Shown one piece after another: positions 4,696-29,461 of a stretch of 64,000 nt of DNA (the first letter of the stretch is position 1; every line of letters begins with the position of its first letter). The DNA is from Armatimonadota bacterium (GTDB taxonomy: Bacteria; Bacteroidota; Ignavibacteria; OLB7): the NCBI GenBank assembly GCA_020850315.1, contig JADZEY010000030.1:35312-99311 (forward strand). The letters run 5' to 3'. Under the pieces are notes generated by a model. It saw only the letters and a list, made by a program, of their open reading frames with translations. It did no database searches and was not told the origin of the DNA. The translations under genes were made by a program, and so were the position numbers.

Positions 4696-7008
4696 TTACC
4701 TGAGCCGTGGCGCTCCCATGTTTAGCTCGGCGCGTTGGCTTAGCTCCGATTCGGCCCCGTCGTCGTCGAACAGGGCGCGGATTGCGTACTGGTGGCTGCC
4801 CCCCATTTCGGTGGCGGTGTCAACAAACAGGCGTTTGTCGCCGGGGACTGCTTTGTACTGCTGCAATGGCCCAAGCCCCACCGCGCGGTAGATGATAAAC
4901 CGCATCTTCACCCCCGGGGCTGGCTTTGGATATTCCCACGTTAGCGTTGCGGTGTGGGCGGCAGTGTCCCCTTTCACTGCCACCTTCGTTACCGGCGGGC
5001 GAACCCCATCATCGTAGGGCCGGGCGGTAAAGGAGACAGCTTCCGGCGAGCGGAACCCTGTGCTGTCCAACGCCACCACAGTGTACTCATACACCACGCG
5101 CTTTTTCACGTCGCGATCGGCAAAGGTGCTATCGGTTCGCCCCATTGTTTTGCCGATTTGCTTCCACGTTGTGTCGCGGCTTTGGGCCATGCGGCGGTAC
5201 AGGATGTGCGATTGCACATCGCGGCTGCTGCTGGGAACCCACGATAGATAGACGGCGGTGTCGGCCACAAGCACATCGGTGAACATCGGCGCAACCGGCG
5301 GAAGAAGATCGGGACGCTCCAGCCGAAGTTGATCCGAAAATTCGGAGTTGTTGTAGTTCCGATCCACCGCCACCACTCTGTAGAACACTTCGGTGGTCAG
5401 CGTCCGCACCACTACCGTATCCACAAACGTTGTTTGGGCGATTGGCTCCTTGGTGATCTGGATAAACTCATATCCTTTCACTGTGCTGTTGGTCCGATAG
5501 ACGCGGTATCCAAGCAAGTCCCGCTCCTTCCCTTTTGCCCAACTCAGTTTCACGATTCCGTTGGTGTCAATTGTCCCTTTCAGCCCCGCAGGAATTGCCG
5601 GGGGGATGGAGTCAACCCGGTAGCCGTAGGTGGCCACCGATGCCGAGAAATTCCCCGCTGTGTCCCATGCCTGAACCATGTAGAAATTGGTGGTGTCGCC
5701 ACGGGGTGATTTGTCAACAAAAGCGTTCACAGTGGCCGGAAGCACACCGGTGTGGATTGGCTTGTACTGGCCATCGTAGGAGGTGCTGCGGACGATGATA
5801 AAGCCTTTGAAATCGGAGGGGATCGCCTCGGCACGCCACGTCACCGTCAGCTCGCCCGGCCCCGATTCCTGCGCCCCCAACACCACTGGCGGGGGTGGAA
5901 CTTCGTGGTCGCGGATCATCACCGCTACCTCGCTGGATGGTTCGGTTTGTTCACCAAACGGCGTTAGCCCACGGACGCGGTAGCGGTATTGCTTGTACAT
6001 CGGGATGCTATCGCCAAAAGCAACTTTCCCGCGCATCTCTATCGGGATGCTATCCTGCGCCCCTTCATTCTGGAACCCCACAATCGGCTCGCTGCTGACA
6101 GCCCGGAACTGGTTGCTTCCCGGCTCGGCACGCTCGACAACAAACGCTGAGTATGGCGGGGCGTTCGGGGTTTGGGCATCCCACGTTATCAGCACCCGGC
6201 CTTGCTTATCCTGGCTTGCGACGTTGGTTGGTGCTGGTTGTGGTTTCTCATCAACGGCAGCTGCCACCATGTATGCCGAGGCGACGGTGTAGGTGCTGTC
6301 GAAAAATGCTTTTGTTACGCGATAGAGGTAGTGCTGCCCCGGCTTCACGTTGCGGTCAACAATCCGAAGCGCCAAGCCTTCGGCAGCAACGGGGTCAACA
6401 TCGGCAGCAAGGTGGGCAAAGCTCCAGCGGTTGGTAAGCTCGTCGGCACGGTTGCGAAGCGAGGCCACGGTCCCCTGCTGCGAAGGCTGGAACGATTCGC
6501 CGTACAAGGCGTGGGCCGCCACCGCCCGCATGGTGATGGTTGCTGCGTCGCGCTTCTCCCATTCGGCCAGCGGCCAGGGGAAGATCGGTTCGGGGGTGAT
6601 CGGCGTGAAGCCTTTTGTGGAATCAATCCTGAGGCTGTCGTCCAGCTCGGCACGCTCCACAAAAAATCCATCCTTGTTGGCAATCACCCATCCCCCCGGC
6701 TTTGTGATGCCCCACCGCAGGACGATGGAGTCCTTGTAGTTCCGTGTGGTCAGCACGATTGCGGCGGCGCGCGGATTTGCGCTGTCCTCCTTCATTTTTC
6801 TGATTGCCTGCACAATCGAGTCAACCCCTGCCGGAACCTTCATTGGGGCTTCGTTCAGGATTGGATCGGTCGGTTTTTGTGGCGGCTTGGTTGGTGGCTT
6901 GGGCGGTGTGCCACGCTGGGCCTGGGCCGAAGCAACCGCCAGCATCGCAAACAGCAATGCCAGAAAAAGTGCGCGTACCTGCCGTGAAGCTGTCAGAATG
7001 GTGTTCAT
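4696..7008 (-). CDS. Secreted multi-fibronectin-type-III protein
   Basis: Signal peptide MNTILTASRQVRALFLALLFAMLAVASAQAQ; repeated FN3-like strands (VLITWDAQ, LTVTWRAE, VKLSWAKG, VYLSWVPS, ATLTWEYP). Confidence 0.85.
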   Translation of the reverse strand: MNTILTASRQVRALFLALLFAMLAVASAQAQRGTPPKPPTKPPQKPTDPILNEAPMKVPAGVDSIVQAIRKMKEDSANPRAAAIVLTTRNYKDSIVLRWGITKPGGWVIANKDGFFVERAELDDSLRIDSTKGFTPITPEPIFPWPLAEWEKRDAATITMRAVAAHALYGESFQPSQQGTVASLRNRADELTNRWSFAHLAADVDPVAAEGLALRIVDRNVKPGQHYLYRVTKAFFDSTYTVASAYMVAAAVDEKPQPAPTNVASQDKQGRVLITWDAQTPNAPPYSAFVVERAEPGSNQFRAVSSEPIVGFQNEGAQDSIPIEMRGKVAFGDSIPMYKQYRYRVRGLTPFGEQTEPSSEVAVMIRDHEVPPPPVVLGAQESGPGELTVTWRAEAIPSDFKGFIIVRSTSYDGQYKPIHTGVLPATVNAFVDKSPRGDTTNFYMVQAWDTAGNFSASVATYGYRVDSIPPAIPAGLKGTIDTNGIVKLSWAKGKERDLLGYRVYRTNSTVKGYEFIQITKEPIAQTTFVDTVVVRTLTTEVFYRVVAVDRNYNNSEFSDQLRLERPDLLPPVAPMFTDVLVADTAVYLSWVPSSSRDVQSHILYRRMAQSRDTTWKQIGKTMGRTDSTFADRDVKKRVVYEYTVVALDSTGFRSPEAVSFTARPYDDGVRPPVTKVAVKGDTAAHTATLTWEYPKPAPGVKMRFIIYRAVGLGPLQQYKAVPGDKRLFVDTATEMGGSHQYAIRALFDDDGAESELSQRAELNMGAPRLR

Positions 7009-7390
7009 ACGCTGGTCTAAAAAGGAAAACGATGGATATCGAAGCGGGAAGCCATCTCCATTGCCATCAAGGTTCGCGATAAAATGGTGTTCATCCGCTG
7101 ATTAAACGGAAGAATTGATGCCGAACGGAGAGAGAAGCCTTCTCCACACCAACCAATCTACACGCCGAAGGCCAAGATCTTTGGGGAAGGATGCCAAGAT
7201 TGAAGAAAGTGAGGTGGGATTGATAGGAAGCCTACGAGTAAATCGCGAAAATGGAGTTCATCCGATGCCCGCACCATGCGAGGCAGCGAGCGTAGCGTTC
7301 TTTCAAAAATCGGCAAGATCGGCTTGCATGGCTGCGTTGTGGTGTTTCGTCAAGGTTCAAAAAAACTCCAACCTGTCAGGGCGATAACGG

Positions 7391-7420
7391 GGCGGGGGGA
7401 GTGAACTCACTCCCCCCGCC
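7391..7420. terminator. Strong hairpin downstream of the giant gene
   Basis: GGCGGGGGGAGTGA-AC-TCACTCCCCCCGCC; perfect 14-bp arms; weak T tract. Confidence 0.5.
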
Positions 7421-7442
7421 TTCCTTTGCGTCGCTGTTTTTA

Positions 7443-10400
7443 TCAGAATCTTCCCGCACGATTGTTGTGCATAGTCCCGTTGTACTGCCACATGATTGAG
7501 CGCGGGTTGCGGGTCACCGACTCGAAAGTTTCCCCACGGGATTCGTAGAAATTCATCTGATACCACCCCTGCGGCAGTGAGTAGAAACGGCTGAGCGCCG
7601 AGCGGTCGTACTCCAGCTGGCCCAGATGCAGATACCAGTAGGGCTTCAGGAAATCATCCCAGTACTCGGTTTTTATCAGCAACTGCTCCGTCCGTCCGCT
7701 TGCTGCGCGGAACCACTGATACTCACCCCAAACCGCCATTGAGTAGGCTTGGCTGGCGGCGTTCACCATCCGCATTCCCAGGTTCCAGGCGTGTTCTTCG
7801 TAGCGGTACTGGACCCAGAGCGTGCCGGGCGCGCCGCCGGGGAATCGCTCGGGACCACATTCCCAACATGCCCCCTGGCCGTAGGACCAGCGCGAGCGTG
7901 GGTTCGGGTTCAGTGTCCCACCGGCAAGCTCCCAATCGGCGATTGGCTCCACCGCTGCCGAGCGATCAATGTAGGCAAGCCACGACGGCACTTGATAGGC
8001 CGCATCCTGAAGGTTCTCGCCGATGTAGCGGGTCATCGGAAGGTTCTGCACGCGGTTCCATTCCACCCGCCGCCCGTTGGTGTAGTAGTAGCCCAAGTGG
8101 TAGAAGTATCCGGTGTAGGCCGGCGGCTTGGGAACGTCGTATTGCAGAATCCGGTTTTGGATGTTCCGCATAAACATGTTGTAGTTCCAATCCCCCGGGA
8201 CGTTGGCCTCCACGGCAATTTGGCCGATGTCGTATCCATCGAACGGCTCGAAGCTATCGAAGTGGAACACCAACCGGCGGTCGCTTTGGCGATCAACCCG
8301 CTTGGCGCGGACCCCCATCATCTTCGTCTGCAGGTCGCGGTAGGCGCTTGTGGCAAAGTCGTTGTACCACAGCATCTTCTCCTGCGCGCCGGTCATTGGG
8401 TTCACCCGCACCCCGCCCAGCTTGCGGTTTTCACGCTCCAGCGTTGCCTGCACGATTCGGGTTTGCGCGTCGGTTTCGGCGCCGCCAGTTTCTTGAACCA
8501 CTGCGGTGAAGGTTGTAGTGTCAATTTTATCCAGAAGCTGGCTTGTTTGCCCTGCTTTTCCGGCAAGGTAACTGGTCTCGCGGAAGACATCCATCCGGTA
8601 GAGGGTGGAGGTGCTAAGCTGCGAAACCGAGAAGCTGAGCCCAGCTTTTTGGCGGTCGAATGCTGGGTAGTACTTCACATCTTCCACAACCGTATCCTTT
8701 CCGGTTCCGCCGCGCGGGATAAACCGCACTCGCAATTTCTGCTGCACAACTCCATCGCTTTTTTCGGTCAGCAAGTAGCCCTGGTCGCGCCGTAGCTGGA
8801 TGAAGCCATTGGTCCCCATGTTGTACGGCCCCGGATGGCTTGCCAAGTAATACCGTTGGCGCGCACCTGGCATCGAGAACTCCACGTTGTCCCAGGGGAT
8901 GTAATCCGGCTGCGGGCCGGTTGTGAAGTAGGTCTCTTTGGTCTGGTCGGCAATCGGATCCAGCTTGCTTGGGTCGTTCGGGTTCGGGTAGGTGGCCGGG
9001 GCCCACACGCCACCGAAGGTTGTCCGGTGCGGCGCGTACTCTTCGGCGTACGCTGCAATCGAGAGCTTGTACTGCTGATACCCGTTCAGCATATTCTGTG
9101 GGTTGATCTGCGATGCCCGGCTTCCCTGCGTCCAGAAGATGGAGGTCGGTTCGGTGACGGTTCCGCCGCTGGGCGGGTTGTAGGTCATCACCGGATTGCG
9201 ATCCAGTATCCGGTAGGTGTGCACAATCTTCTCATCGTTCAAATCCTTCAGCTCGAACGGTGTGCCCAATGGGAAATTGTGGCTGACTTCGGGCGTTACC
9301 AGCACCGGGATATTTGTGGCCCCCGCCTTTGGCGAAATGTCCTCGATCATCGGAACCGACTCGGTGAACGGATCACCCTTGCGCGGGCGGCATTGGTCGC
9401 CCACCGAAAATTCGTAATGGCAGGTCCCTTTAATCAACCCGAACAGGATTTCATATTTGGCGGCCAGGTAGCCTTCAAACCATGTTGGGTTTGGCAATCC
9501 CATCCGCAGCAGTGCCGCGCCGCTGAAGGCGATAATCGGGAACTTCCGCTCGGCTCCGAACAGCTTGATTTTGATCCCGATGCTGGCATCTATCCAAGCG
9601 TAGGCTTGCCCCTGGGCGTACCATCCATCGTTGAATCCAATCTGCCCGCCGCCGTCGGAGTTCCCGCACGACATCCCTTTGAACTGCTTGACTTCAACAT
9701 CGAACCCAACGCCCAAATCAAGGCTGCCGTAGAAGATCAGGAACTCACCACCAACCGGGCCAACTTGGAAAATTGTCCCGAACATGAACCCGCTTGCCGA
9801 GCGGCCAATCATCGGCTTCGATTTGATCTTTGCCCGCTGATCCTCGGTCAGTTTGCTCAGCACCTGATCGGGCGGATCGGGAAGCGGCGGAAGGCTGTCG
9901 CCAGCCATGATGTAGGATGCAAACTTCATCTTGATGATCGCCAAATTCACCTCCAGCGTCATCCGGTTTTTTGGCTCGCCCAACTTCACCTGCCACCATT
10001 TTGGCTCAACGTGAATCACCGCTGGGATATGCGCTTTCACCACCTTGAAATCAAGATCAACCTCGAACGCAGCATGGAAGATTTTGTTGACGTTATCGTA
10101 CAGGATCGAGACGCTGGCCTTCAGCGCGGGGTCTTTCCGTTCGGTAACGTCGCAGGCCATGTACAGGCTTCCGTCGAAACGGATCCGCTCCAGTCCGCCG
10201 CTGCTGGTGAAGCTGATGGCCAGCTGCACGTCGGCATTCACCGGCTTCGGGTCGGGGACGGTCCCGATTGTCACCGATGCTTTGAATCCGAACAGCGTCC
10301 CTTCGTTCGGCACGTATTCTTCGCCGCTAAGGGTTGCGCCAACTTTGCTGGGCAATCCACTTTTGGAAGCGTCGCTGTTTTCCGGAACCTTCATCAACAA

Positions 10401-13400
10401 GGTTGGATCAAGTTGATTTTTTGGGGCCATGTGATACCACGCGCCGCCGCCAAACCCGTAGATGCCGATTGCCGGGCCAAGCACAATCCCCGGATTGAAT
10501 CGCGCCATTGCGTCAACGTACCAGTAGCGGAAATCCTCGCCCGGGTTCACCTCGCTTGGCTTGGTGCCGAACTGCACGGTCACGCCAACGTAGATGTTCT
10601 TCAGAATCCAGCACTCCACAATGCCACGGAAGCCATCGCCGAAGGTGGCATCCTTCTTGTAGAACTCAATCAACCCCTTGATCTTCACCGCCCCCATGTC
10701 GGCTTCAACGGCGATTTTCGTCAGGTCAATCCCGTCGAACTCTAACTTCTGGCCCCACTCCTTTGCATCAAGGTTCAGCTTGGCTTTCACCATCAATCCC
10801 ATCTTCCCGCCGATGCTGGTTTTCTCGCCAGCAAGTGCCAGGGTGATGTCGAACTTCAGCCCGATGCTTGCGTCGTCGGTTGCGAACTCGATATTCTCGA
10901 TGGAGAGTGGGAATCCCCCCATTTTCTTCGGCGGCGAGGTGAAGCTGAAGGCTTTGTAGCTGAAGCGTTTTTCCCCTTTCGGTGGGTTCGATTGCACCAC
11001 AAGATTCTCGAACCGCAGGCCCTCCATCTTCAGTTTGTACTCCTCGTAATCAATGCTGAAGTAGCCTATCAGATCGGCTTTTGCGTTGAACTTCCCTTGC
11101 CCTGCCACGTTGCCGATGGTGATGTTGCTTCCTGGCTTCAGGTGCAACGCGGCTTTCCAGAACGTGGCTTTCAGCGGCTTGTTCTCTTCGATCTTCAACT
11201 GGAACTGCCATTGCAGTTGGCTTTTTCCGGTGGCGGCGTTTTTCCCCTGCTGAATCAGTGCCGAGTAGTACATGGATTCATCGGCAATCGGCGTTTTGAA
11301 ACTGCCGTTCAGATACCCTTTCTTGAAGCTGCTGCTGACGATCTCCACGCCGATTTTATCCAACGTGAAGCCCCACCCGGCCAGCTTGCCGTAGTTCACC
11401 ACATTCTCCACCATGAAGTTCGCGCTCAGTCCGGTTTTGTCAACCAGCATATGCTCCACCGCGAACGCAATCCCTTTCCCTTCTTGATCGGTAGCAGACC
11501 ACGCGGTGGGAAGCGAAATTGCCGCACGCTTGATGTAGAAACCGCGCCACAGATTGCTTTTGTCCTTGGCGTAGCCGTCGGGGAACTTGATCCCTTCGGG
11601 GTTCACAACATCGCTGTGGTCGTAGGCCATTTCCTGCACTTCCAGGCCGAAGCCGTCGTTGCTGGCAATGAAGCATTTATCAAGATTGACCTTTGCAATC
11701 CAGTTGTTCCAGTCGCGGATTTGGGCAACGAAGTTGGCTTGCACCTGCTTGGTTTCGTCGCTGTTCGGGGTGCCGTCCGCGTTGCGCGGGACAAGCCAAT
11801 CGCGTGGGAAGATTGCCGAGGCATCAATCCGCAATCCATCGAACTTTCCGCACTTCAGCTTCACGTAGGTTCCCTTGTTGTCGTCGTCAAGCTCGGTATC
11901 CTTTGGGGCGTTCAGCTTCAGTGCCATTCCGCCGCCAAGTTGCAGCGTGAAATCGCCGGCAACGTACAGCTTCATCGTGCCGTTGGATGCGCCGAATGAG
12001 CTTGGAGTGAAGACAAGATCGCGCGCGCCGAAGTCAATGAAATTGGTGCTTTGGCCGTTGGTCAAATCGGGTGTTTCCAATCGGAAGGCACACGCCATTG
12101 TCCCTTTTTTGGGGGTGAAGGTCATGCCGATAATTCCCAACGTGTAGTTCTTCCCCTCCACGTTCGCATCGAAGCCAATCGGCAGGCCAATCGGGTCGCT
12201 GCTGGCCAGCATGGATACCAACCGTTTTCCGCTTTGGATTGCTTGGTCAATGGCTTCTGCCTTCCCCTGGTCAAGATCCATTTTCCGCCCAACGGCGTTC
12301 ACCAGCGAGGTGATGGTGCTGTTCTTTACGTCCATCACCGCTTTCACCACGCCGTCGTACATGGCGTTGTCGGCGTTGACCTTGATTCCGCTGAACTCCA
12401 CTTTGATCGGCCCTTTCACGCTCTTCATCTGGATGGTCCCTTTCCCCGTCAGGCCCGCGCCGTCGCCGCTGGCTTCGGTGACGTTCATGCGGAACAATCC
12501 AACTTTTATCTGGGTCCCAACAAAGCTGGGCGCTTTCGATGGAGTCTTGTCGCTGATGTCGGGCGCTTCGGTTCCGGTGCCGCCGTCGTCGCAGTTGTTG
12601 TTGGATGGAGCCTGATACTCGAACGCCGCCAGCTTCCCAACGATTGCGTCCTCGGTACAGGTTGCCGAACGGTCTTGCAGGATTTCCTTTCCGTCAATCT
12701 TCAGCGTGAACCGCCAGACGTAGGTTGCCCCAAAGTCCTTCAGCTGGAAGGTCTTCTTTGCATCCTTTGTGTTGACGAAGGTTAGCTCCAATCCGGTAGT
12801 GTTGGCGGTGTTGGAGATGATGCGGACGTTGGCCGAGTCGTTCCCGGCAAACGATTCGTCGAAGATTGGAGTATCCTTCACCACCGAATCCATTTTCTGG
12901 AACTGCGCCAATTTCCACACCTGCAGCCGCCCGCCGGTGATCCCTTCCTTGCGGATTCCTTCCTGCACAATCACGTTAAAAATTGGCTTGTCGTTCAGGT
13001 CATAAACTCCGCCGGGATCGGGGGTTCCGGCTTTCACGGTTAGGCAGGCTTGGTCGTCGGCGGATTTCTTGTAGCCGAAGGTGGCCAGCTTGGTTTCGAC
13101 TTGGCTGCTGCAAGTGTCACCCGTTTTTGTGAACTGGTCGGTTGTCAGTTTCCAAGCGTACTCCATCCCCTCTTCCGGCTTGAATCGGCTGCTGTCCTGG
13201 GTCATCCGAAGCTCCCAATCGGTGGCTTTGCCGTCGGCCAAATTCAGCGGGGCAATCACGTAATCGCCGCTGGTGGTGACGGTTACGCCACCCATGCTTT
13301 TTGATTGGCCAGCACGCGATGGCTCAACAAACAGCTTGTTGTAGATCGGGGTTCCTTTTGCTGCGTCGGCGGCGGTTTGCCCCGCGCTCTTCTTCCAGAT

Positions 13401-16400
13401 GAACAACTCCACTTGCCCCCAATCGTTCGGGTCAACCGCCGGGGAAATCCGGACGGTGAGCTTCGGTTGCTTCTCCACGTTCTCCGCTTCCTTCGGTGTC
13501 AGCGGGACGATGTAGCGGCAGCCGCCGTAGATGAAGGTTGTGGGGTCGCTTTCCACAATCGTGTTTGGGTCGCCGCAGCTGCTACCGTCGGCCAAGGCGT
13601 TTTCGCCGTTGTAGGTGATGCGGTAGAACCAAGCGTAGCGTTCCCCTTGCTTCAGCTTTTTGCCAGCTGGAAGCGCGGCGTTGTATTTGCCCACCATCCC
13701 TCTCAGCACATTAAAAGTTTCAGGAGATTTGGTGTGGTCAATTGGTATCTCATAAGCGATGATCGTCCGGCCATCAGGCTGCTCGAAATCAATATCCTCT
13801 ACGTTCTCTCCATCCTTCATGGCCGCAAACAGAATCTCCCGTTTGCTGACCGCTGCGGTTTTCATCGAGGTGTTCAATCGTGCTTTGAACTCCTCGGCAT
13901 CGGTCATTACTGCACCGTCGGGGGGGAAGGCGTTGTTCAGCGTCAGGCAGGTGTTGCCGCCGCCGATGAAGCTCATCAATTTGGAGGTTGCGTCCCGTTT
14001 GCAAGCAACCGAATCGGGGGTGTAGATCGTGGTCTCGACGTGCCAGACGTACTCCTGCTCGGCCTCGGTGCGGAACTTGTATTTGTCGTCGCCCATCACA
14101 ATGCGCCACTCGGTTGGGCGCTTCTGGGTGTTGTCAACCGGCTGGAAGTAGAACGCCAAGCGTGTCGCGCTGATTCCATCGCCCAAGTCTTTTTTCACAC
14201 CGATGTCGCGGCTGTCGCCAGCAAGGTGGTCGTAGATTGGTGTTCCCTTTGCTGCGTCGTCGGCGCTTTGCCCCGATTTCTTTTTCCAGATTTTTAATCT
14301 GACACTGGTAAAATCATCGGGGTCCACGCCCGGTGCGGTGCGGAAGGTGAAGGTTGGAACGCCGCTGACGGTGTCGCCAGTTTTTGGTGTTGATCCGGCC
14401 ACGGCAAAGCAGCCGCCATAGACGAACGTTGTTGGCCGTGTCAGAAGCTCCTCGTTCTTCCCGCCGCAGGAGCCGCCCTTTTCTAAGATTTCATTACCAT
14501 CAAATTGAACGCGCAATCGCCAGGCGTAGCGTGCGCCGATTTTCAGCGACTTTCCTTGCTTGGCAAGCTCCTGATTCAAATTTTTGATCGGGAGGTTATA
14601 GGATATTGTTTTGCTTCCGGCATACAGCAGATCGTTGATGCTGGCATCGTAGCGGATCAGATCCATTGGGGATTTCATCAGAAGAGTAAGGGAATCTTCT
14701 TGCCCAACTAACTCGCACAGCTCGTAGATATGCCCGTCAACATTAGCAGCGTTGATTAGCTCGGAGAAATCAACCGATAAAGCATCACCATCGGCGGCAG
14801 TGATCCCCCCCACAGGCGCGATGTTCCGTGCTGTAAGGCATCCACCGTAGATGAAACTGGTTGGGGTGCTTTCCACCACTGCATCCTTTGCGCACGACTC
14901 TCCACCTTCGATTGCTTTATCGCCGTCGAAATAAACCCTCATCTTCCAACCATATCGTTTGCCAGCCACCAGCGATAATCTAGATGGCATCCCCTTGATA
15001 AGGTCCTTTAGATATACCCCAAATAGAGACCGATAAGCTGCAGGATCGCTTTGTGTAGTAAAGGGGATCTCAGATTCGTATTGATATCGCCCGTCGTTGA
15101 AATCAACGCTATTCGCTTGTTCCCCTTCCTCTAGTTCACATAGGACAAGGACACGACGTTTCACTGAACCCGCACGAATTTTCTTCGATAGCTTTACTCT
15201 AAAATCGCCTGTGCTATCGGTAATGGCCTCACCCTCGGCGGGAAGTGTATTAGTGGCTGTAATACAGCCACTATACATAAAACTGGTGGGGATGCTTTCC
15301 CATGTGCTAACGCCGCCGCCGCAGTCGCTACCATCGGCAAGAAGTTCGGCAGCGCTGGCTTTTAACCGTACTCGCCATCCGTAGCGTTGTCCTGGCTTTA
15401 ATGATTCCCCTTGCTTTGCCAGGTTGCCAAAAAGTGACCGAACGCTCATTGCTATAATTCTGAATGTTGCATCAGGAGAATAGACATCATCGGTGGCCAT
15501 CACTATGCTGTGATATTCGCGTCCATCTTTTGGGTTTACCATGTCGGCTTTTTCATCAGCTTTCAACGCAAACACTTCCCACTCACGCAAGTAGCTGCTG
15601 GAAGCACGGTAAGCCTTTGATAACTGCACTTGCAGATCCCCATCGCGGTCATTGATGGCTGCGCCGTCGGTAGGAAGGATATTCTTGATCGTTACACAAC
15701 CGCCATACACAAAACTCGTTGGGGTGCTTTCTACGGTGGCCTCCGGCTCACCGCAGGAGCTACCGTCGCTGAAAATCGCGTTGCCATTGTAGGTCAGGCG
15801 TGCACGCCAGCCGTAGCGTTGCCCAATTTTTAAGGATTTCCCTTCTTCATCAAGGGCTTTATTGATAGCATTAATCTTATAGACGATGCTTTTAGTACTA
15901 GCTTCCGGGGCAAACACATCGTCGGTTAGTTTATCTACGATGAAATACTCACGCCCATCCTTTAGTACAACATTCCGTGGGTCTTCGCCGGGGCGAAGCG
16001 CGAAAATCTCCCATGTCCGTTTGGAGGTGTTGGCAAGCCGGATCGGTTTGTTGAATGCTACCTGCAAATCAGTGGTATCCTCAGCCATTGTTCCGTTGCT
16101 TGGCCAGACGTTGGTTAGTGCAATGCACCCCATATCCTTGCGGAAGCTGAACAGCGGGCTGGCGGTAGTGGTCCGGGCGCAGGCTTGGCCATCCATCCGG
16201 ATGGCGGTGGTGTGTTTCAGCGTCAGTTGCCACAGGTAGTCCTGCTTGTCGTTGGCCACAAACTCCACCGGAACCCCTGCATCGTTGATGCGGAAATGGA
16301 TAACGTCGCCAACGATGTTCAGATATGGAACTCCGCTGCCGTCCATGTCGCGCAGGGCCGCGCCGGCGGTTTTTTGCGTGCGGGAAAAATTGATGTCGCG

Positions 16401-18344
16401 AACCAAGTTTGCTTGTGTGGTGTCGGCTGCGGTTTTGCCCCGCCACACCCGAAGCTCACCCTCCAGAACCTCAGTTGGTTTCACCGAATTGGAGACCCGA
16501 ACCTTGAACGTTGGGCGGCCTTCCTCAATCGCCGATTTATCCTTCGGGAACTCGGCAGCAAGCGCAAAACAGTTGGCGTTCGGGTCCACCACAAACCGCT
16601 GCACGGGGCTGCTGTTGTAGAACTGGCCTGTGGTGTCGTTGCCGTCGTTCGGGTCAACCATCCATTTCACCCGCCAGTAGTATTCGCCGGCTTTGCTCAG
16701 TTTTGGCCTGACGGTTTCCTGGCGGTAAATCTCCTTCTGCAACAACGCTGCCGAGGTGCTTGGCGACATGGCATCAAGCAGCATTCCGCCAACGCGCCCG
16801 GTGTCGCGGAACAGCGGGTTTTTCATGTCGGGCGTGCGCGAGATTTCCAGCACCCATTTCTCGTTGACGGTCATCGCGTAGAACTTCGCGCCCCCTGCCT
16901 TCGGCTCGGCCTTCAGGTCCAGCGGCAACGTCAGCGCGCTTTTATCTACTGGCTCGCTGGTCAGGAACCGGAGCGTGACGGTATCGGGAAGGACGGAGCT
17001 TCCGTTGGCGGGTTCGTTCAGCACCGGCGCGCCCATCCCGACGCTGAACCGCCCTGTCACTTTCCGTTTGGTGGCCGTTTCTTTCTCCCCCTCTTTCTTG
17101 GTGATCGTCACATCTGCCGTCCACGAATAGCTTTTCAGTGGCGATAGAAATTGATCTTTCCGTTCGCCCATTTTCTCGTTCTGGTCTGGGCCAACAACCA
17201 CGTAGGATGCTCGGTTCTTCTCGAACATATCCGGTTGGCGGGTCGCGTTGTTGAACGGGCCATGCTTCCATTCAATGATTCGTTCCTTGCTGCCAGCGCT
17301 GTTCCCGGTGTTCTCCTTCAGTGAGTAGGTGGAGGTGAATTTGGTGAGGTCACGGCAGTACGGCGCAAACTGCACAAGCACCGGCACAAAGCGGTACGGA
17401 ATGCGGATGTCGTCCTTTGGATAGGCGGCGGTGATGTAGGTCGGTTTCTTGCAGTCGGGGTCTTCCGGTTTCGGTTCGGTGCTGTCGCCATAGACAAACG
17501 TGCAGACCTCGCTGTTGCCATTGTTGCGGAAGTTAGTGGCGGCGGTGGGGTCAATGGCTTGCACCCGCCAGGCGTATTTTTTTCCCTTTTTCAGCTGCGG
17601 GTCGGCGGCTCCATATTGATAGATGGGTGCGGTCAGCCCTTCTTTCTTGAAAAGCGTGGGGGCGACGGCGGTCAGCAGTGCTTCTTCCGGGTTGCGGTCG
17701 TCGGGGATCACCTCGGCCATCGTCAGGGTGTAGGTGATTCCGCCGGTGGCCCCGGCTGGCGGAGTCCATTGCAGCAGCAGCAGTTGCGGATCCACCGTCT
17801 GCGTCACTTTCGTGTTGCATGGCGGGGCTGTCAGCTTTGGGGCCTCGATGGTGCGGATGGTGAAGCTGGCGCAGCCGCTTGCCGGGGAAAGCTCAGCTTT
17901 TGTGCTGTGATCCAGTGCCTTCAGACAGATGGTGTACGTCCCTTCGTTCAGCTGTCCCGACCGCGCAACGGTTCCTTTGTCGGAGCCGCTGATGGAGACG
18001 GCGTTGGCGTTGAAAATCTTCAACTCACTTCCGTTCACCGTTCGGACTCCGCCGGCTGGGACGGTGATTGCTGCGACCGGGTAATCGTCGTTGGTGGTGA
18101 CTTTTATCCCCCCCAAGTTATCCTGCAACGTGCCGGAAAGCCGGACGCTGTAGCTTGTTGCGGGGTCGGTGTTGGTCATCGTGATGATGATCCGCTCCGG
18201 GTGGCGATCCCACTCCGATAGCGTGGCTGCATACGGGGGGACCACCGTCACGTTCACAACAATGGGTTTGCTTTGGGCTGCGGCTGCGGCTGTCAGCAAC
18301 ACAAGGGTGACGAAGCTCTGGAAGAAGTACCGGAAAGTCTGCAT
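7443..18344 (-). CDS. Giant (~3633 aa) secreted TANFOR-like repeat protein
   Basis: Likely start at 18344 (MQTFRYFFQSFVTLVLLTAAAAAQS signal peptide), not 18668: the ORF-track extension runs through a dispersed non-coding repeat. N-terminus (VNVTVVPPYAATLSEW...) resembles TANFOR-type modules. Confidence 0.85.
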   Translation of the reverse strand: MQTFRYFFQSFVTLVLLTAAAAAQSKPIVVNVTVVPPYAATLSEWDRHPERIIITMTNTDPATSYSVRLSGTLQDNLGGIKVTTNDDYPVAAITVPAGGVRTVNGSELKIFNANAVSISGSDKGTVARSGQLNEGTYTICLKALDHSTKAELSPASGCASFTIRTIEAPKLTAPPCNTKVTQTVDPQLLLLQWTPPAGATGGITYTLTMAEVIPDDRNPEEALLTAVAPTLFKKEGLTAPIYQYGAADPQLKKGKKYAWRVQAIDPTAATNFRNNGNSEVCTFVYGDSTEPKPEDPDCKKPTYITAAYPKDDIRIPYRFVPVLVQFAPYCRDLTKFTSTYSLKENTGNSAGSKERIIEWKHGPFNNATRQPDMFEKNRASYVVVGPDQNEKMGERKDQFLSPLKSYSWTADVTITKKEGEKETATKRKVTGRFSVGMGAPVLNEPANGSSVLPDTVTLRFLTSEPVDKSALTLPLDLKAEPKAGGAKFYAMTVNEKWVLEISRTPDMKNPLFRDTGRVGGMLLDAMSPSTSAALLQKEIYRQETVRPKLSKAGEYYWRVKWMVDPNDGNDTTGQFYNSSPVQRFVVDPNANCFALAAEFPKDKSAIEEGRPTFKVRVSNSVKPTEVLEGELRVWRGKTAADTTQANLVRDINFSRTQKTAGAALRDMDGSGVPYLNIVGDVIHFRINDAGVPVEFVANDKQDYLWQLTLKHTTAIRMDGQACARTTTASPLFSFRKDMGCIALTNVWPSNGTMAEDTTDLQVAFNKPIRLANTSKRTWEIFALRPGEDPRNVVLKDGREYFIVDKLTDDVFAPEASTKSIVYKINAINKALDEEGKSLKIGQRYGWRARLTYNGNAIFSDGSSCGEPEATVESTPTSFVYGGCVTIKNILPTDGAAINDRDGDLQVQLSKAYRASSSYLREWEVFALKADEKADMVNPKDGREYHSIVMATDDVYSPDATFRIIAMSVRSLFGNLAKQGESLKPGQRYGWRVRLKASAAELLADGSDCGGGVSTWESIPTSFMYSGCITATNTLPAEGEAITDSTGDFRVKLSKKIRAGSVKRRVLVLCELEEGEQANSVDFNDGRYQYESEIPFTTQSDPAAYRSLFGVYLKDLIKGMPSRLSLVAGKRYGWKMRVYFDGDKAIEGGESCAKDAVVESTPTSFIYGGCLTARNIAPVGGITAADGDALSVDFSELINAANVDGHIYELCELVGQEDSLTLLMKSPMDLIRYDASINDLLYAGSKTISYNLPIKNLNQELAKQGKSLKIGARYAWRLRVQFDGNEILEKGGSCGGKNEELLTRPTTFVYGGCFAVAGSTPKTGDTVSGVPTFTFRTAPGVDPDDFTSVRLKIWKKKSGQSADDAAKGTPIYDHLAGDSRDIGVKKDLGDGISATRLAFYFQPVDNTQKRPTEWRIVMGDDKYKFRTEAEQEYVWHVETTIYTPDSVACKRDATSKLMSFIGGGNTCLTLNNAFPPDGAVMTDAEEFKARLNTSMKTAAVSKREILFAAMKDGENVEDIDFEQPDGRTIIAYEIPIDHTKSPETFNVLRGMVGKYNAALPAGKKLKQGERYAWFYRITYNGENALADGSSCGDPNTIVESDPTTFIYGGCRYIVPLTPKEAENVEKQPKLTVRISPAVDPNDWGQVELFIWKKSAGQTAADAAKGTPIYNKLFVEPSRAGQSKSMGGVTVTTSGDYVIAPLNLADGKATDWELRMTQDSSRFKPEEGMEYAWKLTTDQFTKTGDTCSSQVETKLATFGYKKSADDQACLTVKAGTPDPGGVYDLNDKPIFNVIVQEGIRKEGITGGRLQVWKLAQFQKMDSVVKDTPIFDESFAGNDSANVRIISNTANTTGLELTFVNTKDAKKTFQLKDFGATYVWRFTLKIDGKEILQDRSATCTEDAIVGKLAAFEYQAPSNNNCDDGGTGTEAPDISDKTPSKAPSFVGTQIKVGLFRMNVTEASGDGAGLTGKGTIQMKSVKGPIKVEFSGIKVNADNAMYDGVVKAVMDVKNSTITSLVNAVGRKMDLDQGKAEAIDQAIQSGKRLVSMLASSDPIGLPIGFDANVEGKNYTLGIIGMTFTPKKGTMACAFRLETPDLTNGQSTNFIDFGARDLVFTPSSFGASNGTMKLYVAGDFTLQLGGGMALKLNAPKDTELDDDNKGTYVKLKCGKFDGLRIDASAIFPRDWLVPRNADGTPNSDETKQVQANFVAQIRDWNNWIAKVNLDKCFIASNDGFGLEVQEMAYDHSDVVNPEGIKFPDGYAKDKSNLWRGFYIKRAAISLPTAWSATDQEGKGIAFAVEHMLVDKTGLSANFMVENVVNYGKLAGWGFTLDKIGVEIVSSSFKKGYLNGSFKTPIADESMYYSALIQQGKNAATGKSQLQWQFQLKIEENKPLKATFWKAALHLKPGSNITIGNVAGQGKFNAKADLIGYFSIDYEEYKLKMEGLRFENLVVQSNPPKGEKRFSYKAFSFTSPPKKMGGFPLSIENIEFATDDASIGLKFDITLALAGEKTSIGGKMGLMVKAKLNLDAKEWGQKLEFDGIDLTKIAVEADMGAVKIKGLIEFYKKDATFGDGFRGIVECWILKNIYVGVTVQFGTKPSEVNPGEDFRYWYVDAMARFNPGIVLGPAIGIYGFGGGAWYHMAPKNQLDPTLLMKVPENSDASKSGLPSKVGATLSGEEYVPNEGTLFGFKASVTIGTVPDPKPVNADVQLAISFTSSGGLERIRFDGSLYMACDVTERKDPALKASVSILYDNVNKIFHAAFEVDLDFKVVKAHIPAVIHVEPKWWQVKLGEPKNRMTLEVNLAIIKMKFASYIMAGDSLPPLPDPPDQVLSKLTEDQRAKIKSKPMIGRSASGFMFGTIFQVGPVGGEFLIFYGSLDLGVGFDVEVKQFKGMSCGNSDGGGQIGFNDGWYAQGQAYAWIDASIGIKIKLFGAERKFPIIAFSGAALLRMGLPNPTWFEGYLAAKYEILFGLIKGTCHYEFSVGDQCRPRKGDPFTESVPMIEDISPKAGATNIPVLVTPEVSHNFPLGTPFELKDLNDEKIVHTYRILDRNPVMTYNPPSGGTVTEPTSIFWTQGSRASQINPQNMLNGYQQYKLSIAAYAEEYAPHRTTFGGVWAPATYPNPNDPSKLDPIADQTKETYFTTGPQPDYIPWDNVEFSMPGARQRYYLASHPGPYNMGTNGFIQLRRDQGYLLTEKSDGVVQQKLRVRFIPRGGTGKDTVVEDVKYYPAFDRQKAGLSFSVSQLSTSTLYRMDVFRETSYLAGKAGQTSQLLDKIDTTTFTAVVQETGGAETDAQTRIVQATLERENRKLGGVRVNPMTGAQEKMLWYNDFATSAYRDLQTKMMGVRAKRVDRQSDRRLVFHFDSFEPFDGYDIGQIAVEANVPGDWNYNMFMRNIQNRILQYDVPKPPAYTGYFYHLGYYYTNGRRVEWNRVQNLPMTRYIGENLQDAAYQVPSWLAYIDRSAAVEPIADWELAGGTLNPNPRSRWSYGQGACWECGPERFPGGAPGTLWVQYRYEEHAWNLGMRMVNAASQAYSMAVWGEYQWFRAASGRTEQLLIKTEYWDDFLKPYWYLHLGQLEYDRSALSRFYSLPQGWYQMNFYESRGETFESVTRNPRSIMWQYNGTMHNNRAGRF
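12600..16140 (-). repeat. Eight ~430-470 bp internal coding repeats in the giant protein
   Basis: Recurring unit starts near 16133, 15700, 15270, 14840, 14411, 13950, 13520 and 13050, with consensus QRYGWRxRLxYNGxxxxxDGSSCGxxxxxxESTPTSFxYGGC. Confidence 0.85.
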
Positions 18345-18554
18345 GGTGTGCGTTCGATGTCTGAAATCGCCTGAAAGAAATCGCCACATCGGCTTGGCTG
18401 CCAGATGGGAGAACCACCTGCTTTCAAGGTATTCGCCGCGCACCAAGATTTCCGGCAAATGATGCCAAGATTGGAGAGGAAGAGAAAAAAAGTGGCAACT
18501 TTGGCAGAGAAGGAATGGTGAGTGGTTGCTTCGTGCGATTGCAGAGTGGGTGTT

Positions 18555-21117: not shown

Positions 21118-21143
21118 CGGGCTTGGGTGGCTATTTCATCATT

Positions 21144-21198
21144 GAACAGTGTTCTCACTGCCACACGCAAGAATGCTTCGACAGGCTCAGCATGAGCG
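21144..21198. repeat. 55-bp dispersed repeat, copy A
   Basis: GAACAGTGTTCTCACTGCCACACGCAAGAATGCTTCGACAGGCTCAGCATGAGCG; near-identical to 23546-23600. Confidence 0.85.
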
Positions 21199-21351
21199 GA
21201 AGGTGGTGTCCGGTGAAAAGCGGAAGGTGATGTCCGGTGAAAAAACGAAGCATTGAAATTTGCTAGGTTCAGCATGAGCGGAGGGTGGTGTCCGGTGAAA
21301 AAACGAAGCATTGAAATTCGCTATATCCAGCATGGTTTTGCGTAAGGTGGG

Positions 21352-23385: not shown

Positions 23386-23545
23386 TGCTGTGCCTGTAGT
23401 GGTATTGAATAGAGAGTATTCTGGTTGGAGTTGAGTTCGTATGGTTAATCAGCCAATTACTTCGACGGGTCGTGGGCTTCGACAAGGAGCCAGCGATGAG
23501 GCATCGCGAAACAGTGGCGCAAGCCAATCTGGCGGGTTTCTCAGA

Positions 23546-23600
23546 GAACAGTGTTCTCACAGCCCCCCGCGAGAATGCTTCGACAGGCTCAGCATGAGCG
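23546..23600. repeat. 55-bp dispersed repeat, copy B (same orientation as copy A)
   Basis: GAACAGTGTTCTCACAGCCCCCCGCGAGAATGCTTCGACAGGCTCAGCATGAGCG. Confidence 0.85.
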
Positions 23601-23782
23601 AGTGAGCAAGCTCACCCGTCAGCACAGAAGCGCGGGTGAGTTCACCTCGCCCCCGTCATTGCCCCGACCGATGTCGGGGGCTTCGACAAGGAGTCGGCGA
23701 TGAAGCACCGCGAAGCCCCTCTCATCACAATGGCGAATGAGCATAATGTCTAATCGCCACGAAAATTTTTTCTATTAAAAAA

Positions 23783-24836: not shown

Positions 24837-24969
24837 AACGACTTACGCAAGGTAGAGCAGTACGCCTTGCCCGTTCAGCGAACAACACCCACGCAAAAGC
24901 GCGGAGGGAGGGTCAAGAGCCATGATCGGCAGAAATCGTACAGATCTACATCGCAATTGAGACACCGCA

Positions 24970-26766
24970 ATGCAAGCTAATAACATCACCAGACGATCAC
25001 GAAGGGATCAGTCTATGGTATGGATGCTTCTCCTTCTGCTGATTATATCTAGCAGAGAACTCCGAAGCCAAGAAGACAGCTCTTCAGCAATAACGATCAG
25101 CGGTAGCACGGCAATTGAGTCCGATTTCTACTCTCTTCAGTCAACACCCGGCAACGCAGTTCCGACACGCCGTCCCGGTTCGCTTGTGCGGTTGACTGTC
25201 GCGCCGACAATCACCTTCGGCGATGTCCTCACGCTGCCGCTCGAATTCAGTATGACATTTCCAGAGACGACAACCCTGTTTCCAATTCCGGCGACAACAA
25301 GCGTCAGCGACTTTGTGCAGAATCTTGCGAACCGTTTCGGCATTACACCGACGTTCGGTTGGGCACGGTTCAATCTGGGAACACACACACCGCAGCTCTC
25401 GCCGCTCTCCGGTGGTGACATCCAACTCTTCGGTGCTGGTGTTGACCTCTCCCCGGGCCACTTCAGAATCGTTGCATCGGCGGGGGCCGTGGGGCGGCGT
25501 GTGATGACCGATACCGTGGCGGGAACCGAAGGTGAGTATGCACGGCACGCCTACATGGGAAAGCTGGCATATGTTGATAGCCTGACAGAGATCGGATTGA
25601 ACCTTGTCCGTGTTCGCGACGATGGCGCGTCCATTCCGGTGGTTATGAAATCCCGGGTCATCCAGCCAGATGGGTTTGACCCGACGATTCTTGACACCCT
25701 TGTTGAGCGCGACCCGCTGATGCCTGTGCCGGAGGAGAGCTTCACGGCCACACTCAACGTTCAGTTCCCGATCACCAAGGGTGTTCGTGTGGCAGCAGAG
25801 GTGGCAAGCTCGCTTTTCACACGGGATATGGAATCACAGCCTGTCTCCAAGCCTATCAGTGCCATCGAACCTCTGCTGGCGCAACGATTATCCACACGAG
25901 CCGATCTTGCTGGGAATTTCTCCGTGATGCTGGAGCAGGAGGCTTGGGGGCTTAACCTTAAATCCAGTTATATCGGCCCGGGCTATCACACCCTTGCTTA
26001 TCCGTGGATGGAGGCCGACAAAGTTGATGTCACAATGGAACCGCACATAGCGCTCTTCGATGATGCGCTTCGGGCAAGCGGAACAATCGGCTGGCGCAGA
26101 AACAATCTGGCAGATCAGGAGGAGGCGACGACAACCCAGTTGCTTGGTTCTGCAACCATTGATGCACGCATAGGCGATGCCCTCAGCATCAACGGACAAT
26201 ATGCCAACTACGGAATAAGGACACCAGTCAGGAACGACACGTTCAGGGTGGAGACGGTCTCCCAGTCGTTCAGCGTGACACCGGTTCTGGTTCTGCCGAC
26301 CGAGAACCTTACGCACGTCATCACGGCCAGCGTAGGTTTCGACACCTACACCGATCTCAATCCTGTGAGCGGTGCGGATGGACGGAGCCAGACGCGGAAC
26401 CTCTCGACCAGTTATTCAGCATCACTCGCCTCCATTCCCCTCTCTCTGGAACTCTCCGGCTCGTGGCTGGTGAACCAGTTAAGTATTGGCGAGATGGAGG
26501 TCACAGGGGTTGGGCTGGGCGCGGGCTACAGGTTGTTGGGCAACGATGTGACGCTGGGAGCCTCAGCACAGCTAACGCAGACAGCACTGGGCAATATCGC
26601 TCCCGACAACGACCTCATGCTACGGCTAACCAGTACCTGGCGGATCACGGAATCGCTCCAGTTTCGGGCGCAGGCATCAACCATCAGCTATCGCTACGGC
26701 GACTCACGTCCGGGTGTCTCGTTCCGGGAAAACTTGCTTCGGGCATCGCTGCAATGGCAGTGGTAA
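24970..26766 (+). CDS. Putative outer-membrane beta-barrel protein
   Basis: Hydrophobic N-terminus, alternating beta pattern, terminal FRENLLRASLQWQW. Confidence 0.75.
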   Translation: MQANNITRRSRRDQSMVWMLLLLLIISSRELRSQEDSSSAITISGSTAIESDFYSLQSTPGNAVPTRRPGSLVRLTVAPTITFGDVLTLPLEFSMTFPETTTLFPIPATTSVSDFVQNLANRFGITPTFGWARFNLGTHTPQLSPLSGGDIQLFGAGVDLSPGHFRIVASAGAVGRRVMTDTVAGTEGEYARHAYMGKLAYVDSLTEIGLNLVRVRDDGASIPVVMKSRVIQPDGFDPTILDTLVERDPLMPVPEESFTATLNVQFPITKGVRVAAEVASSLFTRDMESQPVSKPISAIEPLLAQRLSTRADLAGNFSVMLEQEAWGLNLKSSYIGPGYHTLAYPWMEADKVDVTMEPHIALFDDALRASGTIGWRRNNLADQEEATTTQLLGSATIDARIGDALSINGQYANYGIRTPVRNDTFRVETVSQSFSVTPVLVLPTENLTHVITASVGFDTYTDLNPVSGADGRSQTRNLSTSYSASLASIPLSLELSGSWLVNQLSIGEMEVTGVGLGAGYRLLGNDVTLGASAQLTQTALGNIAPDNDLMLRLTSTWRITESLQFRAQASTISYRYGDSRPGVSFRENLLRASLQWQW

Positions 26767-26833
26767 TGCTGATTGGCGACAACAGATCTATTTGCAAATA
26801 CAACCATCATTCAACGTCCTATCAAACACGCAC

Positions 26834-29461
26834 ATGAAACAAACATTCGCGTTACTGATGCTATTTCTCTTGCCGTTCATTGCGCATGGACAACAGATGC
26901 GCATTTCTCTGAACGTCACATCGAACCCCAGTCCCTATCTCTCGGACTGGACGACACGAAAGCAGACGGTAATCCTGACCGTTGTTAACAGCGATGCAAA
27001 ATCGGTCGAGGTCAAACTTGCTGCGCGGATATCTCGTGATGGGGTGCTGCAGGTGGATACGAAGCTCGACAAGCTGCCAATCTTCACAGTCCGCCCCGGT
27101 GTCAACACCTTCTATGGTGAGAATCTTGTCCCGGAATCGGCAGTGACGTTCTACGGGGATGTGGACAAGAAAGTGGTACGATCGGGGAGGCTTCCTTCCG
27201 GCTCATATCAGTTCTGCCTAAGGCTACACAACGCTGCTACGCTTGCCCCGCTTGGCGAGGAACAGTGTCGTCCTTTCAAAATACAGAGTTATCAGGGGCC
27301 GCGGCTGATTGACCCGGCAGCGTCGGCAACGGTGCCACCACCATACATGCGTCAGACGTTCCGGTGGAGCCCCGTGGCACCAGCATACTCGCCAAACCAG
27401 CAGTACCAGCTTGTTATCATGGAGGTGCGGAGCGGGCAGACACCAACACAGGCGTTCCGTGCGAACCGACCGATCCTTACACGGGATATCAAATCAGCAA
27501 CACAGATGATCTGGCCAACCGATGTTGCGCTCGACACACCCATGACCTACGTCTGGAGCGTGCGGGCATTGGATGATGCGGGGGATCCACTGGGGGAACC
27601 AAAAGATGGTTGGGCAGAACCACGGAGTTTTTCGTTGGGGCGTGGGGCGCATACTATGGCTGATGCAGCAATGCTACGTGACCCAGGTGCTATTCCGCTA
27701 ATTCCGTTTGATGATACCCCACCAACCTTCACCGATGCAACCAACCGAGACGGCATTGATCGTTCACCGCAGAAAAGTATCCGCCATCTACAGGGTGACG
27801 AAGTGGAGCGGGGAGTCACATCCGGCAAGATTGCCAGGTTCAAGGTACGGACCATCGAGATCGAAACCGACGACGAGGAGCTTGAGGCGACCATTGCAGC
27901 AACGTTCGGGAAGCAGATGACCTTTATCCCCGCGGTATATGGCACCGAGAATGGTGATCTGCTGATCATTCCTCAAGCCGTGCTGAATGCATTTGCCCCG
28001 GATGGGGACAATGCTGACATAGGCAAGACTTTCGGAGTGTGGGAACCAGAACCCGCAGCGAAACAGGCAGGCGGCGATTCCGGGAAGAAAACTAAATTTT
28101 GCTACAGAATTCTCCCGCTCGATAACCCGTCGATTACGTTCCCACCTGATACTGAATGGCTGTGCCCCGTTATACGCATAAAAACACCGCAGCATCGTAT
28201 CATCACACCAAGCACACCGAACGGAAGCGTCATCACCTATACGAGCAGTATCAATGGGAGGCGCGTACAGATCTATCTAGAGGGTACTGTCACTGAACCA
28301 GAGGCGATTGTCATCGGCGGCTTTGAATACTGTGTGTGCTGTGTTTATAATACTCGCACAGGAACGCCCTACTGCGAAGTATGGGTGCGGGATCATGAGG
28401 CAAGCTGTGACGCAGTTTGCACCGGGCTACGCAAATGGTATAAAAATCTAACAGATAATGCCATGAGGGTACTTCCAAACGACAGCGGCTCCATTCGTTC
28501 CGTACCAACAACGAACCCAACACCAACACCAAAACCAAAACTGGTTTCGCTTGGTTGCTACCCGGCTGAGCCCAAGTCATGCCAGAAGAAAGGTGACGGC
28601 TGTCTTGTGATGTTTCCTCCAGATGATACTTGGATAGTTGATAAGGTAGGGGTTAGTACTGTGATGACAGGGCAAGCAGAGGTGATTACTGGTGCTTCCA
28701 GTGTGCTTGTGTATCGCCCTACTACACCGAATGTCAAGGATGAACCAATTCATTTGGAACAGGATGTTGTTCTCGATAGCAAAGTTGCTGCGCTGTTGGG
28801 CTACACCAGCCTGACGCTACAGAAGGGGACGTACCCATTGGACAAAAGCACTGGTAGCTTCCAGTTTGCAATTAGCGATACTGGCAAGCCCCTTCTTGCG
28901 GTACCAACGCCGCATGGGATAATTGTTGGTGGTGATCCCCCTGAATGCCACTGTTGTGGTACAATTCTTCGTCGTTCTGACCACCACGACTCTATCCTCT
29001 GCTGTGAAGAGAAACGCAACAATCCCAAAATGCACTACATCGTTCCGCAAACTGGTGCGATCAGGTACTTCGAGTACGATACGGATTTCGCGATTGACAA
29101 CCCTGAGTTCTGCAAATATCTTGGCGTGAAGCAGGTGGTCATTGCCAAGGGCATCTATCGTGTGGAGCGATCAACCCCGGAAGCAGGTGGGAAAATAACC
29201 CTCACGCTGGCTGAACCTGTCTCTGCAGAAAAAATACGTGGCCGATCATCCTTCACCTTCAGGGGGACCAACCCGAAGGGCAAAGATTGCAAGGGCATTG
29301 GGAACGCCTGCTTCTGGGCAACGGAGCCAATTGCGCCTGGGGATACTTGCATCTTATCCGTCACACCCATTATCAACGATGGGAAGTGTGTTGCAATCAA
29401 ACTTCAGTATCCAGATCCCAATGGCAGGGGAGTCGGCTCGCCAAAGTCGGCAGGATTTTAA
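26834..29461 (+). CDS. Secreted TANFOR-like protein with Cys-rich C-terminal half
   Basis: Start at 26834 (MKQTFALLMLFLLPFIAHGQQ). Module MRISLNVTSNPSPYLSDWTTRKQTVILTVVNSDAKSVEVKL...SGSYQFCLRLHN parallels the giant protein's N-terminus. Confidence 0.8.
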   Translation: MKQTFALLMLFLLPFIAHGQQMRISLNVTSNPSPYLSDWTTRKQTVILTVVNSDAKSVEVKLAARISRDGVLQVDTKLDKLPIFTVRPGVNTFYGENLVPESAVTFYGDVDKKVVRSGRLPSGSYQFCLRLHNAATLAPLGEEQCRPFKIQSYQGPRLIDPAASATVPPPYMRQTFRWSPVAPAYSPNQQYQLVIMEVRSGQTPTQAFRANRPILTRDIKSATQMIWPTDVALDTPMTYVWSVRALDDAGDPLGEPKDGWAEPRSFSLGRGAHTMADAAMLRDPGAIPLIPFDDTPPTFTDATNRDGIDRSPQKSIRHLQGDEVERGVTSGKIARFKVRTIEIETDDEELEATIAATFGKQMTFIPAVYGTENGDLLIIPQAVLNAFAPDGDNADIGKTFGVWEPEPAAKQAGGDSGKKTKFCYRILPLDNPSITFPPDTEWLCPVIRIKTPQHRIITPSTPNGSVITYTSSINGRRVQIYLEGTVTEPEAIVIGGFEYCVCCVYNTRTGTPYCEVWVRDHEASCDAVCTGLRKWYKNLTDNAMRVLPNDSGSIRSVPTTNPTPTPKPKLVSLGCYPAEPKSCQKKGDGCLVMFPPDDTWIVDKVGVSTVMTGQAEVITGASSVLVYRPTTPNVKDEPIHLEQDVVLDSKVAALLGYTSLTLQKGTYPLDKSTGSFQFAISDTGKPLLAVPTPHGIIVGGDPPECHCCGTILRRSDHHDSILCCEEKRNNPKMHYIVPQTGAIRYFEYDTDFAIDNPEFCKYLGVKQVVIAKGIYRVERSTPEAGGKITLTLAEPVSAEKIRGRSSFTFRGTNPKGKDCKGIGNACFWATEPIAPGDTCILSVTPIINDGKCVAIKLQYPDPNGRGVGSPKSAGF

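What the first reader, a model, noticed from the sequence alone, without database searches (positions are those of the whole stretch)
4696..18344. Giant TANFOR-like protein plus FN3 protein as a candidate uncharacterised secreted system
Seen: a ~3633-aa secreted protein followed on the same strand by a 770-aa FN3 protein with a signal peptide. The giant has an N-terminal module, an eight-repeat zone, a long beta-rich central region and a C-terminal region lacking a recognisable T9SS domain. Inference: a co-inherited surface or extracellular apparatus of unknown function.
Basis: partly seen in the sequence, partly recalled or inferred. Interest (0 to 1): 0.62.

Follow-up and report, generated by a model that had tools for sequence, protein, structure and literature searches.

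The report
Giant TANFOR protein with dedicated partners
The giant protein and its FN3 neighbour are two of three proteins that travel together across the Bacteroidota, the third being a large outer-membrane channel-like barrel found only in genomes with TANFOR proteins, which suggests how this little-understood toxin-related family may reach the cell surface.

Summary
Both genes are real: a 3633-aa secreted giant (7443-18344, -) and a 770-aa FN3 protein (4696-7008, -), in a Chlorobiota/Kapabacteria-type genome. The giant starts with a TANFOR region (the class Jana et al. 2020 called polymorphic toxins). It continues with nine ~145-aa repeats (not eight), a ~1000-aa conserved all-beta body ("c0") and a conserved C-terminus. 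That C-terminus is not a variable toxin tip and not a T9SS sorting domain.

c0 is followed by the FN3 gene ("c1") in 97 of 101 loci read (some counted twice). A third, unnamed family ("c2", predicted 24-26-strand outer-membrane beta-barrel, fold class of MtrB and pilus ushers) is strongly present in 42 of 47 TANFOR genomes and 0 of 151 others. In 46 of 66 cases it lies directly upstream of the TANFOR gene. TANFOR is also fused to c0 or to c2.

In this genus giant, c1 and one c2 are dispersed, yet all three carry one rare promoter motif: three copies per genome, no other match within two mismatches in the window's genome.

Best reading: a three-part surface module in which the barrel docks, exports or anchors the TANFOR giant. 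Co-inheritance is shown; export route and function are inferred. T9SS dependence is not excluded.

The parts
7443..18344 (-). Giant TANFOR-c0 fusion protein, 3633 aa
18276..18344 (-). Signal peptide of the giant (residues 1-23, read by eye)
17445..18344 (-). TANFOR N-terminal region (residues 1-300; TIGR02542 core 31-163)
12600..16574 (-). Nine repeats of about 145 aa (residues 591-1915)
9471..12461 (-). c0 central all-beta domain (residues 1962-2958); its first ~50 residues are a motif also found in separate TANFOR proteins of Bacteroidia
7446..9470 (-). c0 conserved C-terminal region (residues 2959-3633), not a variable toxin tip
4696..7008 (-). c1: FN3-array protein, 770 aa, signal peptide, N-terminal ~250 aa without database match
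18443..18471 (-). Shared rare promoter/operator motif upstream of the giant
7172..7200 (-). Same motif upstream of c1 (third copy: G000:C42:8985-9013, upstream of a c2 barrel gene)
7391..7420 (.). 14-bp perfect hairpin between giant and c1, suggesting separate transcription units
   Evidence: read by eye
24970..26766 (+). c2: outer-membrane beta-barrel, 598 aa, of a second TANFOR unit in the window
26714..29461 (+). Second TANFOR protein, 915 aa (TANFOR region 41-319), directly after c2
30018..32963 (+). T9SS substrate (SdrD_B plus Por_Secre_tail), 981 aa, next to the second TANFOR gene; membership uncertain

Best explanation
The giant and the FN3 protein belong to a three-part surface module. 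Part 1 is a TANFOR giant exported to the periplasm by Sec. Part 2 is c1, a secreted FN3 array. Part 3 is c2, an outer-membrane beta-barrel of about 24-26 strands. Proposed working: the TANFOR region docks the giant on its own c2 barrel, which exports or anchors it so that the beta-rich body is displayed at the surface, with c1 bound to it as a brace or linker. In Bacteroidia the same parts are split. There the TANFOR region heads separate proteins whose ends vary (one here ends in a toxin deaminase), while the body protein plus c1 and c2 are encoded beside them, so the module probably serves as their platform. In this organism TANFOR and body are fused and there is no toxin tip, so the giant is more likely a structural or adhesive component than a toxin. 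SHOWN: co-inheritance, gene order, domain fusions, shared rare promoter motif, predicted barrel. INFERRED: docking, route of export, surface location, function.
For: c0 followed by c1 in 97 of 101 loci, gap at most 100 bp in 85 (a dozen or so loci are counted twice). c2 beside c0-c1 in most Chlorobiota/Kapabacteria-type loci and beside TANFOR genes in Bacteroidia. In 198 complete genomes of the phylum: TANFOR in 47, c0 in 19 (all within the 47), strong c2 in 42 (all within the 47, none in the other 151; Fisher P 8e-38); 46 of 66 c2 genes directly upstream of a TANFOR gene, same strand, within 1 kb. Fusions: TANFOR with c0 (this giant), TANFOR with c2 in single 947- and 895-aa ORFs. One c2 per TANFOR gene in both genomes of the genus (7:7 and 6:6, strong c2 only). 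The giant is the only TANFOR gene without a local c2, one c2 has no TANFOR gene directly after it, and these two plus c1 carry the same motif. The third site, not used to build the pattern, has 1 mismatch; by my own estimate about 0.002 such hits are expected per genome by chance. c2 model: pLDDT 84.4, nearest solved folds MtrB and FimD/PapC ushers. TANFOR toxins: PMC7073777, and a Toxin-deaminase end in L160.
Against: No experiment shows location or export. Fold resemblance of c2 to MtrB/ushers is moderate (TM 0.40-0.50, about 10% identity). The c0 model has no global match (TM about 0.2 at most, pTM 0.53). All 47 TANFOR genomes also have the T9SS translocon gene sprA, so T9SS may do the export. 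The E-value gap that separates strong from weak c2 hits was chosen after seeing the data.
Confidence: 0.5

Rival explanations
1. The giant and other TANFOR proteins are type IX secretion substrates without a classical sorting domain; SprA does the export, and c2 is an accessory barrel that works like PorP/SprF does for SprB-type adhesins.
For: All 47 TANFOR genomes have sprA, against 107 of the other 151. SprB-repeat and Por_Secre_tail proteins sit beside c0-c1 in Bacteroidia. Jana et al. 2020 proposed T9SS export (PMC7073777).
Against: No sorting domain found in giant, c1 or c2; c2 has no PorP/SprF match in Pfam or NCBIfam. sprA is common in the phylum, so the association may only reflect lineage.
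Confidence: 0.3
2. The giant is a surface adhesin or filament-like structural protein with no link to toxins; TANFOR and FN3 are ordinary adhesion modules.
For: Repeats, conserved non-variable C-terminus, FN3 partner, no immunity gene.
Against: The same body, c1 and c2 genes accompany TANFOR proteins with variable ends in Bacteroidia.
Confidence: 0.15
3. The giant is itself a polymorphic toxin whose C-terminus is an unrecognised toxin domain.
For: TANFOR proteins are described as polymorphic toxins (PMC7073777).
Against: Its C-terminal ~670 aa is a co-linear, conserved part of c0 across the phylum, including proteins without TANFOR; the next gene is c1, not a small immunity gene; no toxin family matches.
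Confidence: 0.04

Closest known systems
TANFOR polymorphic toxins of Bacteroidetes (Jana, Salomon and Bosis 2020, PMC7073777)
   Same: N-terminal TANFOR region, signal peptide, large size, FN3 and T9SS-substrate neighbours, T9SS-positive genomes
   Different: Giant carries a conserved c0 body and C-terminus in place of a variable toxin; dedicated barrel c2 and body protein c0 are not named in the parts of that paper read here
PorP/SprF barrels with SprB-type T9SS adhesins
   Same: Outer-membrane barrel encoded beside a giant secreted protein in T9SS-bearing Bacteroidota
   Different: c2 is about twice as large (general knowledge of SprF size) and matches no PorP/SprF model; TANFOR proteins have no sorting domain
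Two-partner secretion (type Vb)
   Same: Pairing of one large exported protein carrying an N-terminal family domain with one outer-membrane barrel
   Different: c2 has no POTRA domain and about 24-26 rather than 16 strands; no match between TANFOR and the TPS domain was seen
Chaperone-usher pili (FimD/PapC)
   Same: Barrel size class; fold search places ushers among the best matches of c2
   Different: No usher family match, no chaperone gene recognised; secreted partner is one giant, not pilin subunits
MtrB outer-membrane conduit
   Same: Best structural match of c2 (TM 0.50)
   Different: No multihaem cytochrome partner recognised; 11% identity

Membership tests
TANFOR polymorphic toxin class | N-terminal TANFOR domain (TIGR02542) | tested here: met
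   E 2.8e-6, 27.3 bits but below the curated 67; family profile A6 E about 6e-114
TANFOR polymorphic toxin class | Variable C-terminal toxin domain | tested here: not met
   C-terminus conserved across the c0 family; no toxin match
TANFOR polymorphic toxin class | Immunity gene directly downstream | tested here: not met
   Next gene is the FN3 protein c1
TANFOR polymorphic toxin class | Sec signal peptide | tested here: met
   Read by eye; no prediction program run
T9SS substrate | C-terminal sorting domain (type A or B) | tested here: not met
   None in giant, c1 or c2
T9SS substrate | Export lost in T9SS mutant | not testable with these tools
   needs a mutant
PorP/SprF barrel | Sequence match to PorP/SprF family models | tested here: not met
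   No match for c2 in Pfam or NCBIfam
Two-partner secretion TpsB | POTRA domains and 16-strand barrel | tested here: not met
   No POTRA match; about 24-26 strands in the model
Chaperone-usher usher | Usher family sequence match, plug, chaperone gene | tested here: not met
   No usher match; only fold-class resemblance, TM 0.40-0.49 for the best usher entries
Outer-membrane beta-barrel (c2) | Closed meander barrel with C-terminal aromatic | tested here: met
   Model pLDDT 84.4, pTM 0.70; most members end in F, window copy in W

The most novel reading that the evidence does not exclude
TANFOR proteins and c2 barrels form a distinct two-partner-like outer-membrane secretion or assembly system of the Bacteroidota, with TANFOR as the recognition domain, c2 as the conduit and toxins or giant surface bodies as passengers, independent of the SprA channel.
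Probability: 0.22. Interest if true: 0.85.

Novelty: new variant of a known kind. Interest (0 to 1): 0.62.

Why it matters
How TANFOR proteins leave the cell is an open question since 2020, with T9SS only hypothesised. A barrel family that is found only in TANFOR genomes, is usually the next gene, is sometimes fused to TANFOR and shares a promoter motif when unlinked gives a concrete, testable partner. It also defines two large unnamed families (c0 body, about 1500 aa, and c2 barrel, neither with a solved relative by sequence) spread over the phylum.

Tried and rejected
C-terminal toxin of the giant: rejected, region conserved and co-linear. RHS/Tc-type shell for the c0 body: no RHS match in Pfam or among the best fold matches. 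c0 body as an LptD-like protein: Foldseek E 3e-6 but TM about 0.2 at most, so treated as a generic beta-meander resemblance. Relation of the middle part of TANFOR toxins to the c0 body: profile comparison aligned well only over the first ~45 columns. Viral fold library: nothing useful. Sequence search of c0 and c2 profiles against the PDB: no hits. T9SS-independence test by finding a TANFOR genome without sprA: none among 47. FN3 partner lost in the sister species: rejected, it lies on another contig with the same motif.

Full report
Observation. The giant is one open frame from ATG 18344 to 7443 (minus strand, 3633 aa) with a signal peptide; the 770-aa FN3 protein (7008-4696) also has one. 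NCBIfam finds TANFOR (TIGR02542) at residues 31-163 with E 2.8e-6, under the curated cut-off. Nine repeats of 142-158 aa fill residues 591-1915. Pfam gives only marginal matches in the giant (a Big_5 Ig-like domain just over its cut-off) and one FN3 domain above cut-off in its neighbour; a family profile shows a tandem FN3 array in the latter. No T9SS sorting domain is present although the genome is rich in them.

The body of the giant is a phylum-wide family. Residues 1960-2960 match 20 of 80 relatives (27-38% identity for the full-length ones, the sister species at 96%), and a scan of GTDB genomes with an alignment found 278 relatives, from Chlorobiota, Kapabacteria and Ignavibacteria-type MAGs to Chitinophaga, Flavobacterium and Aquimarina. 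The following ~500-670 aa are conserved as well in most members (a few end right after the central domain).

Co-inheritance. Reading the neighbourhoods and counting, the FN3 gene c1 follows c0 on the same strand in 97 of 101 loci; some loci were fetched by two routes and are counted twice. A third family, c2, lies beside c0-c1 in most of the first 28 loci; in the window the local c2 belongs to a second TANFOR unit at 24970-29461. In Bacteroidia c0 lacks the TANFOR region, and separate TANFOR proteins with variable ends lie nearby; one such protein ends in a Toxin-deaminase domain. Those proteins keep the first ~50 residues of the c0 profile. The giant of the window is thus a fusion of what is two proteins elsewhere.

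The barrel. c2 has no Pfam or NCBIfam match above cut-off and no PDB relative by sequence. Most members end in an aromatic residue. The AlphaFold2 model (24 sequences, pLDDT 84.4, pTM 0.70) is a meander of about 24-26 long strands; the best solved matches are MtrB (TM 0.50) and FimD/PapC ushers (TM 0.40-0.49 for the best entries). In 198 complete genomes of the phylum, strong c2 matches (E at most 1.7e-41; the next genome is at 3e-27) occur in 42 genomes, all of them among the 47 with TANFOR, none among 151 without. Of 66 such c2 genes 46 lie directly upstream of a TANFOR gene within 1 kb and 60 lie within 20 kb of one. Two genomes of the window's class carry TANFOR fused to the c2 barrel in one ORF. 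The weaker c2-like hits that were examined are a separate barrel family between FecR and CHASE2-cyclase genes.

The dispersed trio and its motif. In the sister species the giant, its c1 and one c2 lie on three contigs. The giant and c1 of the window share ATCTTGGCATC-N-TT-NN-CC-NN-A-N-ATCTTGG upstream. Searching the whole genome with a looser form and up to two mismatches gave one further site, one mismatch away, directly upstream of a c2 gene at C42:7231-8931; the reversed control gave none. The sister genome has three exact sites, upstream of exactly its three unlinked orthologues, plus one three-mismatch hit elsewhere. Two of the three sites defined the pattern, so only the third is independent evidence in the first genome; the sister sites are related by descent. 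TANFOR and strong c2 genes number 7 and 7 in this genome and 6 and 6 in the sister. The giant is the one TANFOR gene without a c2 gene directly before it, and the c2 with the motif is the one without a TANFOR gene directly after it.

Mechanism. A barrel that is restricted to TANFOR genomes, usually adjacent, sometimes fused and sharing a promoter motif when unlinked points to a direct partnership. A domain N-terminal to an outer-membrane barrel normally lies on the periplasmic side, so TANFOR may be a docking domain there (inference from general knowledge). Whether c2 exports, anchors or only supports the giant is not decided; T9SS remains possible because all 47 TANFOR genomes have sprA, as do 107 of the other 151. 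The c0 body is modelled as all-beta with no global structural match.

Prior art. Jana et al. 2020 (PMC7073777) described TANFOR proteins as polymorphic toxins, noted FN3, SprB, PKD and sorting-domain neighbours, and hypothesised T9SS export. In the open library searched, that is the only paper found that treats TANFOR, and it does not describe a barrel partner or the c0 body in the sections read; subscription journals and preprints were not searched, so priority cannot be claimed.

Noticed in passing
L178:8635-11478(-), L179:3122-5809(-): TANFOR region fused in one ORF to the c2 outer-membrane barrel (947 and 895 aa).
   Followed up: partly
L173:3-4998, L174:456-5772, L176:310-5745: Conserved trio: FecR-domain protein, 800-900-aa c2-like barrel with its own N-terminal extension, CHASE2-adenylate cyclase; weak c2 hits of similar size occur in many Bacteroidota genomes.
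   Followed up: partly
window 21127-33255: Segment carrying a TPR-LuxR protein, c2, the 915-aa TANFOR protein and a T9SS substrate has no counterpart at this place in the sister species.
   Followed up: no
window 7091-7008 (-): The start of c1 (ATGAACACCATT) is preceded by a near-duplicate start with a 26-codon ORF.
   Followed up: no
L040:1890-12131, L044:9057-19328: A second giant of about 3400 aa in both genomes of the genus, with several TANFOR-region-like repeats and a c0 body, in an intact c2-giant-c1 order.
   Followed up: no
L125: A contig titled Phycisphaerales MAG carries a Bacteroidia-type c0-c1 pair: misbinning or transfer.
   Followed up: no
L183:6340-19998, L184:1218-13379: TANFOR giants of over 4000 aa without a c0 body match; in L184 c2 and a c1-like gene flank it.
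   Followed up: no
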